From: an uncultured Alphaproteobacteria bacterium
GTDB lineage: Bacteria > Pseudomonadota > Alphaproteobacteria > RF32 > CAG-239
Length of the DNA stretch: 64,000 nucleotides
Assembly (NCBI GenBank): GCA_944393175.1
Contig: CALXZH010000012.1
Coordinates: forward strand, 62,001-126,000
Reading direction: 5' to 3'
This document shows positions 29,345 through 60,062 of this stretch, in pieces. Numbering within the stretch: the first letter of the stretch is position 1; each line of letters opens with the position of its first letter. The translations under genes and the position numbers were made by a program. The notes under the pieces were generated by a model, which was not told the DNA's origin, made no database searches, and was given only the letters and a program-made list of their open reading frames with translations.

Positions 29345-29550
29345 TAACATCCTTTAGTCATAGTTAAACAAAACCCGCTCTTTAGTAAAAGGCGGGCGGA
29401 TGTTAGAAAACCGTATTAGACCAAACGGCTCGGCTTATTCAGCACATAGCCTTATTAGGCCGACATCCGCCCCTAAGGACAGAAATCGGCATATATGAGT
29501 TTTAAGTCGCTATGCAGGCGACTAGTCTAATAAAAGGGTTTTCTAAGCCC
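29345..29550 (-). promoter_or_regulatory. Structured leader RNA of the TRL-like gene (riboswitch-like)
   Basis: On the minus strand the leader can form GGGCGGATGT:ACATCCGCCC (29394-29403 with 29463-29472) as a core stem. Long outer arms are 29403-29412 with 29537-29546 and 29414-29421 with 29525-29532. A terminator uses CCCGC (29374) and GCGGG (29392). An 8-bp duplex (29398-29405 with 29345-29352) covers the ribosome-binding site. These helices are mutually exclusive in part. The same layout precedes the lipoprotein gene at 59237, with covarying arms. Ligand or trigger unknown. Confidence 0.65.
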
Positions 29551-35386: not shown

Positions 35387-35477
35387 GGAGAGATGGCAGA
35401 GTGGTCGAATGCGGTTGACTCGAAATCAATTGTACTCTTTACGGGTACCGGGAGTTCGAATCTCCCTCTCTCCGCCA
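35387..35477 (+). tRNA. tRNA-Ser (anticodon CGA)
   Basis: 91 nt including encoded CCA, with the long variable arm of class II tRNAs. Acceptor GGAGAGA/TCTCTCC, discriminator G, anticodon loop CTCGAAA (CGA), T arm GGGAG/CTCCC. The trailer begins with a long hairpin (from CATACA to TGTATG, 35476-35515) and is duplicated downstream. Confidence 0.97.
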
Positions 35478-35757
35478 TACACCAAAGCCTCGCAAAAGCG
35501 GGGCTTTGATGTATGTTGAGGAGTGATGAGGTTCGAACTCCCGGATAAGGGAGTTTGACAAGGAGGAGCAGGCGAGACGGAGTATCGCCGCATTTGCGAC
35601 GACGCAGCGCGTTAAGAAAACTTGAAAAGTTTTTAGCAATCTCGCTGTCTCCGCCATACACAAAAGCCCTGCAAAATGCGGGGCTTTGATGTATGTTGAG
35701 GAGTGATGAGGTTCGAACTCCCGGATGAGGGAGTTTGACAAGGAGGAGCAGGCGAGA
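35470..35757 (+). repeat. Duplicated tRNA-Ser 3' end and trailer (about 108 bp, two copies)
   Basis: Copy 1 at 35470-35577 and copy 2 at 35649-35757, about 95% identical by eye. Each starts with the last 8 bases of tRNA-Ser, continues with a terminator-like hairpin (AAAGCC/GGCTTT), then TTCGAACTCCCGG, the complement of the tRNA T-arm, within a second hairpin (AACTCCC/GGGAGTT). The 71 bases between copies show no gene. Possibly a scar of integration at this tRNA. Confidence 0.75.
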
Positions 35758-35765
35758 TGGCTTTT

Positions 35766-36230
35766 TTATGAAAAGTGTGTCTTTGCCAGATTGATAATTA
35801 GTTTTTGCTTTTGTTGTGCTTGTCTGACGGCTTGATAGCTGCCTCCTGATTTACGGGTAATGTAACAAACAATAACATTGGCGTTTTCTGCTATATATTT
35901 ATTTCGTCGGCTGATGGCAAATTTTTGGGGGCCTTTGGTGGCTATTGGCGGATAGATAAGTTCGTATCTTTCTTCTAAAAATTGTTGTTTTATTGTTGAA
36001 TAGTGGTTGGGATTATATGCGCAGATATAACAGAGTGTTATGTTGGGATTTTCTTTTTTTAATCGTTGCATTGTGGTTCTTGCAAGCCAATCAAAGTTCC
36101 CTTGTTCACAACACCAAAATTCGTCGTATCCATTGGTAATCAATTCTTTGACAACTTGTTCAAGTTGATTTTCCAAGTGCGTTGTTATCAAAGTATCTCG
36201 ATGACCGAAAAAAGCAACTATACCGCTCAA
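35766..36230 (-). CDS. SLOG-superfamily (DUF1273/YpsA-like) protein
   Basis: 154 residues from a TTG start. FFGHRDT near the N-terminus and ISRRNKYIAENANVIVCYITRKSGGSYQAVRQAQ near the C-terminus are the nucleotide-binding signatures of the SLOG/DUF1273 Rossmann family, whose members sense or process nucleotide-derived ligands. The first 16 codons lie inside a tandemly repeated structured-RNA region, and the same 16 codons recur as a broken copy at 36507-36587. No ATG alternative is available. RBS is poor, suggesting controlled translation. Confidence 0.72.
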   Translation of the reverse strand: MSGIVAFFGHRDTLITTHLENQLEQVVKELITNGYDEFWCCEQGNFDWLARTTMQRLKKENPNITLCYICAYNPNHYSTIKQQFLEERYELIYPPIATKGPQKFAISRRNKYIAENANVIVCYITRKSGGSYQAVRQAQQKQKLIINLAKTHFS

Positions 36231-36453
36231 GTGAAGTCCAATCAGCCCAAGCTAATTGCCTGAAAAGGCGGTGGATGTTACAAACTACGGTCATTATGAG
36301 TGGTAGCCCACTTATTCGTGCGAGCCTTATTTCGTGGCATCCACCTTGCGGTAAATGCCCATATAGCAATAGTTCTCCTGTTTTAAACAGAAGTCCCTTT
36401 GCCCATAATGACCAGGGTTTGTAATCCCTTGTTAAGATTTGGGCTATCCCAAC
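36208..36453 (-). ncRNA. Structured RNA, copy 1 (promoter-proximal to SLOG gene)
   Basis: Minus-strand RNA of about 245 nt. Variable arm helices: TTACAAAC (36278) with GTTTGTAA (36417), and GGTCATTATG (36289) with CATAATGACC (36404), separated by an internal loop CTAC/AGG kept in both copies. The core holds hairpins CAGGAG/CTTCTG, a GCAA-capped 10-bp helix (GGCAT..ATGCC), and AGTGG/CCACT. An outer helix pairs AGCCCAA with TTGGGCT. The 3' end has a T-run at 36208-36213 and overlaps the SLOG start. Confidence 0.68.
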
Positions 36454-36459
36454 TCCTTT

Positions 36460-36488
36460 ACTATATATGCTGAAAAATAAAATTACAA
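36460..36488 (-). promoter_or_regulatory. Promoter for structured RNA copy 1
   Basis: Minus-strand TTGTAA (36483-36488) and TATAGT (36460-36465) with an exact 17-base spacer; transcription would start near 36453. Same in copy 2. Confidence 0.6.
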
Positions 36489-36506
36489 TTCCTAATATCT
36501 TTGAGC

Positions 36507-36587
36507 TTAAATTATTTTTGAACTTTGGGTAAAATTTTTTGTTATCAAAGTATCTCGATGACCGAAAAAAGCAACTATACCGCTCAA
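36507..36587 (-). pseudogene. Broken duplicate of the SLOG gene start
   Basis: Sixteen codons identical to the start of the SLOG gene (TTG at 36587, through FFGHRDTLIT), then ten unrelated codons and a stop at the repeat junction. It arose with the tandem duplication; alternatively it is simply part of the conserved RNA 3' region. Confidence 0.6.
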
Positions 36588-36811
36588 GTGAAGTCCAATC
36601 AGCCCAAGCCAATTGCCTGAAAAGGCGGTGGATGTCGTTAACTACAATCTCTATGAGTGGTAGCCCACTTATTCGTGCGAGCCTTATTTCGTGGCATCCA
36701 CCTTGCGGTAAATGCCCATATAGCAATAGTTCTCCTGTTTTAAACAGAAGTCCCTTTGCCCATAGAGATTAGGATTAACGATTCCTTGCTGAGATTTGGG
36801 CTATCCCAACG
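36565..36811 (-). ncRNA. Structured RNA, copy 2 (upstream copy)
   Basis: Same fold as copy 1 with different arm sequences: CGTTAA (36636) with TTAACG (36775), and AATCTCTATG (36646) with CATAGAGATT (36761), again separated by CTAC/AGG. Sixteen pairs were replaced with complementarity kept, while the 105-nt core is unchanged. T-run at 36565-36570. Confidence 0.68.
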
Positions 36812-36816
36812 CCGTT

Positions 36817-36845
36817 ACTATATATGCTGAGAAATAAAATTACAA
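36817..36845 (-). promoter_or_regulatory. Promoter for structured RNA copy 2
   Basis: Minus-strand TTGTAA (36840-36845) and TATAGT (36817-36822), 17-base spacer, identical to that of copy 1. Confidence 0.6.
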
Positions 36846-36988
36846 TTACTAATATCTTTGAGCTTAAATTTTTTTTGAACTTTTTTTGCGTTGCTCTCGT
36901 TTATAATTATGTGTCGGGTTAAATGCTTATTAAAGTTTTGGATTTACAATGATTGATTGCAATAAGGTTATTTAGTTGAGTATTAAAA

Positions 36989-59691: not shown

Positions 59692-59895
59692 GAACATCCT
59701 TATTTGTGGTTAAAATAAAACCCGCGCTTTTTTTAGTAAAAGGCGGGCGGATGTTCAGAAACCGTATTCTGTTAAAACGGCTCGGCTTATTTGGCCAAAG
59801 CCTTATTCGCCGACATCCGTCCGAAAACAGACTAAACGTCGGCACAATCTTTTAAGTCGTGTGCACACGACTAACAGAATTAAGGGTTTCTGACG
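59692..59895 (-). promoter_or_regulatory. Structured leader RNA of the 59237 lipoprotein gene
   Basis: Same layout as the leader at 29345-29550. Core stem 59745-59754 with 59813-59822 (one G/T wobble); arms TCAGAAACC (59755) with GGTTTCTGA (59885) and ATTCTGTTA (59766) with TAACAGAAT (59872); terminator CCCGC (59721) with GCGGG (59743); RBS duplex GGATGTTC (59749) with GAACATCC (59692). Arms and the eighth RBS pair covary with the other copy. A tail hairpin AGATATG/CATATCT lies at the far end (about 59901-59922). Confidence 0.65.
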
Positions 59896-59980
59896 CCCTG
59901 AGATATGTTTTTTGACATATCTTGCTTGTAGCTTAGCGGTTTAATTGTAAAAAGTAAAGCAAAAATGCGGGAGGTATAAA

Positions 59981-60062
59981 AAGGCGGGCGGATGTTCAGA
60001 AACCGTATAACTGTAAACGGCTCGGCTTATTTGGCCAAAGCCTTATTCGCCGACATCCGTCC
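59981..60062 (-). promoter_or_regulatory. Truncated third copy of the leader RNA after engB
   Basis: Matches the core of the 59.7-kb leader (GGCGGGCGGATG...CGACATCCGTCC) nearly base for base but has different arm bases (TATAACTGT) and lacks the partner arms and terminator. It directly follows the engB stop on the minus strand. Probably a decayed or partial duplicate. Confidence 0.6.

What the first reader, a model, noticed from the sequence alone, without database searches (positions are those of the whole stretch)
36184..36883. Tandem structured RNAs with identical cores but rewritten, still complementary arms
Seen directly: two 343-bp copies share a 105-nt core without a single difference and about 94 flanking bases with one. 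Yet the two arms enclosing the core differ nearly everywhere. Copy 1 arms: TTACAAAC/GTTTGTAA and GGTCATTATG/CATAATGACC. Copy 2 arms: CGTTAA/TTAACG and AATCTCTATG/CATAGAGATT. The internal loop CTAC/AGG between the two helices is kept in both. Random drift after duplication would not change only the arms while preserving pairing, so either selection on structure or an active arm-rewriting process is implied. Each copy has its own TTGTAA-N17-TATAGT promoter. I do not recognise it as 6S, tmRNA, RNase P, SRP, a retron or a known riboswitch. Possibilities: a paired regulatory RNA for the SLOG gene, or guide-like arms.
Basis: partly seen in the sequence, partly recalled or inferred. Interest (0 to 1): 0.87.

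Follow-up and report, generated by a model that had tools for sequence, protein, structure and literature searches.

The report
C4-like antisense RNA leaders, tandem pair
The two repeated RNAs are a diverged, bacterial version of the C4 antisense RNA with which phage P1 controls its immunity, and their differing but self-complementary arms are the address parts of that system, kept distinct while the rest of the two copies was made identical.

Summary
On the minus strand two 216-nt RNAs (36238-36453, 36595-36810) differ at 21 positions, 18 of them in the paired arms (P = 5e-11). They belong to a conserved, covarying RNA family of this bacterial order. The layout matches phage P1 c4: a 5' hairpin, a small hairpin carrying a1 in its loop, strand b1, a spacer hairpin, then a 76-nt module whose b' (hairpin loop) and a' (strand after it) pair with b1 and a1. 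The 'arms' are a1/a' and b1/b', the specificity part of C4. Rfam's C4 model does not detect the family. Rfam sRNA-Xcc1, not described as C4-like in the papers read, shows the complete a1b1 / a'b' / ribosome-site architecture (z = 10-17) and links the two. Some genomes of the order carry up to 14 paralogous leaders with nearly private arms, mostly before surface-protein genes. Active arm rewriting is not supported: copy 1's arms equal those of genome G068 and copy 2's those of G076, so the arm types are old and the cores were homogenised. The SLOG-type leaders lack the downstream C4 target, so how they control SLOG remains open. A new variant of a known kind.

The parts
36238..36453 (-). copy 1: complete C4-like leader RNA, directly upstream of the SLOG gene
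   Evidence: covariance model R1, 212 bits (it is also a member of the model alignment); blastn hits in 32 genomes
36595..36810 (-). copy 2: complete C4-like leader RNA
   Evidence: covariance model R1, 213.5 bits (member of the model alignment)
36417..36424 (-). copy 1 a1 (TTACAAAC) in the loop of hairpin P2 (36414-36429)
36404..36413 (-). copy 1 b1 (GGTCATTATG)
36289..36298 (-). copy 1 b' (CATAATGACC) in the loop of hairpin P9
   Evidence: 99% of b1/b' cells paired, 9 of 10 pairs with double changes
36278..36285 (-). copy 1 a' (GTTTGTAA)
   Evidence: 88% paired, 5 of 7 pairs with double changes
36270..36345 (-). copy 1 C4-like module (76 nt; outer stem P7, hairpins P6 and P9); starts GGT, like RNase P-processed C4
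   Evidence: topology as P1 C4; processing is inferred, not shown
36244..36250 (-). copy 1 TTGGGCT next to the SLOG ribosome site, complementary to the P1 loop AGCCCAA (36439-36445)
   Evidence: run of 6 or more complementary bases in 71% of 45 loci against 27% in shuffles; mostly invariant pairs, so weak covariation
36460..36488 (-). copy 1 promoter-like TTGTAA-N17-TATAGT
   Evidence: promoter-like site just upstream in 40 of 45 family loci, 2.6% in control windows
36817..36845 (-). copy 2 promoter-like TTGTAA-N17-TATAGT
36775..36780 (-). copy 2 a1 (CGTTAA), pairs with a' at 36637-36642
36761..36770 (-). copy 2 b1 (AATCTCTATG), pairs with b' at 36646-36655
36627..36702 (-). copy 2 C4-like module (76 nt)
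   Evidence: plus topology
36507..36587 (-). 26-codon truncated SLOG start behind copy 2
35766..36230 (-). SLOG-family gene (YpsA-like, 154 aa, TTG start)
   Evidence: PF06908, E 3e-4, below Pfam's own cut-off
59713..59921 (-). third C4-like leader (second subfamily) with terminator-like hairpin, upstream of a lipoprotein gene; ribosome site GGATGTTC complementary to GAACATCC of the RNA
59978..60062 (-). partial copy (3' half), same core as the previous, different b' loop
   Evidence: RF02221 38.5 bits, below cut-off; sequence
29386..29472 (-). C4-like module of a further leader upstream of a small lipoprotein gene
   Evidence: RF02221 39 bits, below cut-off

Best explanation
Each copy is a C4-type antisense-RNA leader. 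One promoter transcribes a1b1, then the C4-like module, then (copy 1) the SLOG gene. In canonical relatives the same a'b' also covers the ribosome site of the downstream gene and so would repress it. In the SLOG-type that second target is gone; a complementary pair between the 5' hairpin loop (AGCCCAA) and TTGGGCT beside the SLOG ribosome site is the likely replacement contact. Arms are addresses that must be kept distinct between copies in one cell, while gene conversion homogenised the rest of the tandem. Shown: the pairings, covariation, topology, promoter-like sites, arm orthogonality and the old age of the arm types. Inferred: transcription, processing, repression, trans action and gene conversion.
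For: Covariation of a1/a', b1/b', P2, P6, P7, P9: 94.6% of cells paired, 25 of 36 pairs with double changes, 0 of 500 shuffles. Same layout as phage P1, whose record annotates a1, b1, C4 (77 nt), a2, b2 and which hits RF03163 and RF01695. Matched against mismatched loci: a'b' versus a1b1 z = 25.6 in 46 SLOG-type loci, 12.5 in the second subfamily, 13.3 and 17.1 in the sRNA-Xcc1 family. a'b' versus ribosome-site region z = 10.3 and 13.3 in sRNA-Xcc1 loci; longest complement 6.9 nt against 4.8 in shuffles in the second subfamily. A same-genus genome carries an above-cut-off RF02221 RNA with full a1b1/a'b'/a2b2 (L208). Fourteen paralogs in G067 have 11 distinct b1 arms, eight in G110 have eight; cross-complements are rare. 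Arm types are shared with G068 and G076. Literature: C4 a'/b' set specificity, a 4-nt change separates P1 from P7, and C4 is cut from its precursor by RNase P at the outer stem (PMC5320573, citing Citron and Schuster 1990 and Hartmann 1995).
Against: Rfam C4 does not hit the window, and no genome of 134 in the order exceeds its cut-off. SLOG-type loci show no a2b2 target (z = -0.1). No second exact a1b1 site for copy 1 exists in its genome. The P1-loop contact is mostly invariant, so covariation support is weak. No transcript data exist for this organism.
Confidence: 0.72

Rival explanations
1. A purely cis-acting leader (riboswitch or attenuator) that folds through the a1/a' and b1/b' pseudoknots and switches P5 against P7 near the ribosome site; no antisense action.
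For: Leader sits between promoter and start codon. P5 (93% paired) and P7 (100%) are mutually exclusive and both conserved. Many relatives have a terminator-like hairpin before the gene. SLOG-type lacks a2b2.
Against: Topology and target logic match C4 RNAs. Arms are private to each paralog, unlike a ligand sensor. Downstream genes are unrelated. Copy 2 has no complete gene yet an intact RNA.
Confidence: 0.2
2. An active process rewrites the arms after duplication while keeping pairing.
For: Near-identical copies with different self-complementary arms occur repeatedly.
Against: Between genomes, loci with at least 94% identical cores always share arms; the two arm types of the tandem exist in G068 and G076.
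Confidence: 0.03
3. Assembly or binning artefact: two strain alleles placed in tandem.
For: 36-contig, 95% complete genome; no reads available.
Against: A second, separate instance lies on the same contig and many independent loci exist in other genomes.
Confidence: 0.05

Closest known systems
C4 antisense RNA and c4-a1b1 of phages P1/P7 (RF01695, RF03163)
   Same: 5' hairpin, a1 in a small hairpin loop, b1 strand, spacer hairpin, then a ~77-nt module with outer stem, two hairpins, b' in the second loop and a' after it; specificity in a'/b'; placed on one transcript with a downstream gene
   Different: No significant match to the Rfam models; no a2b2 at the SLOG ribosome site; added P1-loop/TTGGGCT complement; SLOG, nuclease and surface genes instead of icd/ant; chromosomal, multi-copy
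sRNA-Xcc1 (RF02221), integron- and prophage-borne sRNA
   Same: Same module; shown here to have upstream a1b1 and a downstream ribosome-site target; sub-threshold matches in most of the 84 of 134 genomes of the order with a match
   Different: Window copies 1 and 2 do not match the model; in the family found here a2b2 is reduced or lost
Group 1 C4-like sRNAs of Acinetobacter baumannii (PMC5320573)
   Same: Many chromosomal C4-like paralogs with variable specificity loops
   Different: Gammaproteobacterial; recognised by Rfam's C4 motif; described as sRNAs, while here the RNA is a leader joined to each gene

Membership tests
C4 antisense RNA (RF01695 + RF03163) | a1 and b1 upstream, complementary to a' and b' of the module | tested here: met
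   z = 25.6; covariation
C4 antisense RNA (RF01695 + RF03163) | three-helix module: outer stem, two hairpins, b' in the loop of the second, a' before the closing strand | tested here: met
   searches compared
C4 antisense RNA (RF01695 + RF03163) | a2/b2 target at the ribosome site of the downstream gene | tested here: not met
   SLOG-type z = -0.1; met in RF02221 relatives and in reduced form in the second subfamily
C4 antisense RNA (RF01695 + RF03163) | score at or above Rfam gathering threshold | tested here: not met
   no hit in window up to E 5; none above cut-off in the order
C4 antisense RNA (RF01695 + RF03163) | module cut out of the leader by RNase P | not testable with these tools
   5' end would be GGT as in C4; no RNA data
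C4 antisense RNA (RF01695 + RF03163) | downstream antirepressor/icd-ant gene in a phage | tested here: not met
   SLOG, SNase, surface genes
sRNA-Xcc1 (RF02221) | score at or above 53 bits | tested here: not met
   window copies 1 and 2: none; other window copies 37-39 bits; one same-genus RNA at 56 bits
metabolite riboswitch | conserved ligand-binding core with ligand-linked gene set | tested here: inconclusive
   conserved core but unrelated downstream genes; no Rfam riboswitch match

The most novel reading that the evidence does not exclude
These bacteria have domesticated a phage-immunity RNA into a genome-wide set of addressable leaders for surface and SLOG genes. Private arm pairs insulate each copy, the shared ribosome-site-binding strand lets copies cross-repress (for example mutually exclusive expression of 14 surface genes), and gene-less extra copies such as copy 2 act as stacked immunity against incoming elements of another address.
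Probability: 0.2. Interest if true: 0.82.

Novelty: new variant of a known kind. Interest (0 to 1): 0.62.

Why it matters
It explains an odd pattern (same core, new but complementary arms) with a known logic, antisense specificity. It unites sRNA-Xcc1, so far treated mainly as a trans-acting or virulence sRNA, with C4, and predicts its target: the gene right behind it. It shows that C4-like RNA has become a common leader of surface-protein genes in one bacterial order, with natural sets of orthogonal RNA addresses that can be tested.

Tried and rejected
Rfam at gathering and permissive thresholds for the window: only tRNAs or chance. Phage and plasmid records: no blastn match. SLOG relatives in viral contigs: none. 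6S, tmRNA, RNase P, SRP and retron were considered and dropped for lack of matches. Type III toxin-antitoxin: no short tandem repeat array, so dropped on anatomy. A second copy-1 target in the genome: none exact. A search for more tandem arrays in sRNA-Xcc1 loci (mostly Pasteurellaceae) found only one locus with two copies, about 1.8 kb apart. PADLOC hits for the SLOG protein are marginal (ShosA E 9e-4 over 58 aa), so no defence role is claimed. Covariance-model E-values are rough; hits below about 50 bits were accepted as relatives only where their sequences were read.

Full report
Observation. The repeat is real. Two copies, 357 nt apart, lie on the minus strand between the SLOG gene and a MacA-like gene. 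Over the 216-nt RNA they differ at 21 positions; 18 lie within the 47 arm positions (P = 5e-11), and the arm pairings are intact in both copies. The repeated unit also holds the promoter and the first 45 nt of SLOG; behind copy 2 there is only a 26-codon remnant.

A family. Blastn finds relatives in 32 of 153 genomes of the order; a covariance model finds 126 of 153, with few outside the order. Rfam does not know the window copies. On 26 aligned members b1/b' is paired in 99% of cells with double changes in 9 of 10 pairs, a1/a' in 88% with 5 of 7, P7 and the P9 hairpin in 100%. Slid or shuffled controls fall far below. A promoter-like site lies just upstream of 40 of 45 members, against 2.6% of control windows.

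What it is. Weaker relatives in the same genomes gave repeated sub-threshold matches to Rfam sRNA-Xcc1. Reading upstream of true sRNA-Xcc1 loci revealed the same small hairpin with a loop matching the 3' part, followed by a strand matching the loop of the last hairpin. This is the a1b1 / a'b' plan of phage P1 c4. The P1 record annotates a1, b1, a 77-nt C4, a2, b2 and icd in that order, and Rfam's C4 and c4-a1b1 models hit it. Element by element the window RNA matches: 5' hairpin, a1 in a hairpin loop, b1, spacer hairpin, module with outer stem (P7), hairpin (P6), hairpin with b' loop (P9), a', closing strand. (The P1 record labels the loop-borne strand b and the other a; I follow that.) The module is 76 nt and starts with GGT. 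C4 is cut by RNase P at that place, and processed Acinetobacter C4-like RNAs start GGW (PMC5320573); for this RNA processing is inference.

Targets. I scored complementarity for matched against mismatched loci. In 30 and 51 sRNA-Xcc1 loci, a'b' matches both the upstream a1b1 (z 13.3, 17.1) and the region at the downstream start codon (z 10.3, 13.3). So sRNA-Xcc1 most probably acts on the gene behind it, which fits its reported place upstream of symE (PMC12444791). A same-genus genome has such a full system (L208, 56 bits). In the second subfamily the ribosome site is complementary to a' plus the P7 closing strand (AACATCC with GGATGTT; in subgroups AACTTCC with GGAAGTT and AACTCC with GGAGTT); the mean longest run is 6.9 nt against 4.8 in shuffles. 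In SLOG-type loci there is no such match (z -0.1). There the loop of the first hairpin is complementary to TTGGGCT beside the ribosome site (71% of loci with six or more bases, 27% in shuffles), but that pair hardly varies and is weaker evidence.

The arms. In P1 and P7 the a'/b' sequences set specificity; a 4-nt difference is enough to stop cross-reaction (PMC5320573, citing Citron and Schuster 1990; the heteroimmunity role is also in PMC12197685). The same reading fits here. Genome G067 has 14 paralogous leaders with 11 distinct b1 arms, and eight parsed leaders of G110 have eight; b1 and b' match within a copy and rarely between copies. Two other near-identical copies in the window's own genome differ mainly in the b arm (L188, L189), and a partial neighbour of the leader at 59713 has the same core and another b' loop.

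How the tandem arose. Loci in different genomes with at least 94% identical cores always have identical arms. The tandem pair is the exception: 98% identical cores, different arms. In the whole set, identical b1 with near-identical a1 at core identity under 80% occurs only twice: copy 1 with G068 and copy 2 with G076. So the two arm types are old, and the cores in this genome were made alike afterwards, most simply by gene conversion. A tract covering one arm strand would break pairing; one covering both would merge the two addresses. That copy 2 keeps a perfect RNA without a gene suggests the RNA itself is useful, or that the homogenisation is recent. This is inference.

Context. SLOG-type leaders precede two SLOG (YpsA-like) gene types, secreted staphylococcal-type nucleases and a few other genes. 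In the window and in L074, L077, L080 and L098 the unit sits near tRNA-Ser(CGA), and the window holds repeats carrying the tRNA end, typical scars of integrating elements. The second subfamily precedes lipoproteins, prepilin-like and repeat-containing secreted proteins (recognised mostly by eye).

Verdict. Real, conserved and well explained in kind: a C4-type antisense leader that fails the C4 family test on defining points (no a2b2 at SLOG, no model match) and is therefore filed as C4-like, not as C4. New here, as far as the papers read show: the link of sRNA-Xcc1 to C4, the expansion in this order, and the mode of the SLOG-type. No paper read describes sRNA-Xcc1 as C4-like; one reports both families side by side in Xylella without equating them in the passages read (PMC12189769). 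My literature search covers only open-licence papers.

Noticed in passing
window 59713-60062 (-): Another tandem of a complete C4-like leader and a partial one with the same core and a different b' loop, upstream of a lipoprotein gene.
   Followed up: partly
window 35387-35760: tRNA-Ser(CGA) followed by ~180-bp repeats that carry the tRNA 3' end; probably scars of integrated elements next to the SLOG locus. SLOG-type leaders lie near tRNA-Ser(CGA) in L074, L077, L080 and L098 too.
   Followed up: partly
L188:77-239 and L189:404-567 (own genome, contigs C13 and C4): Two nearly identical short C4-like leaders that differ mainly by compensating changes in the b arm.
   Followed up: partly
L134-L163 and L214-L293: sRNA-Xcc1 loci precede Bro-N, KilA-N and Rha-like antirepressor genes, SymE-like and other small genes (recognised by eye from translations, not by a family search).
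   Followed up: partly
L083 (G068) and L119 (G072): C4-like RNA just upstream of secE; 3' end degenerate, no SLOG gene.
   Followed up: no
L105 (G128): Three leaders on a 3.6-kb contig, two with the same b arm in front of different small genes.
   Followed up: no
Xylella fastidiosa Temecula1 1,313,466-1,315,082 (PMC12189769): Five sRNA-Xcc1 copies about 381 nt apart, reported as sXF1-5; possibly a tandem array of the same kind.
   Followed up: no
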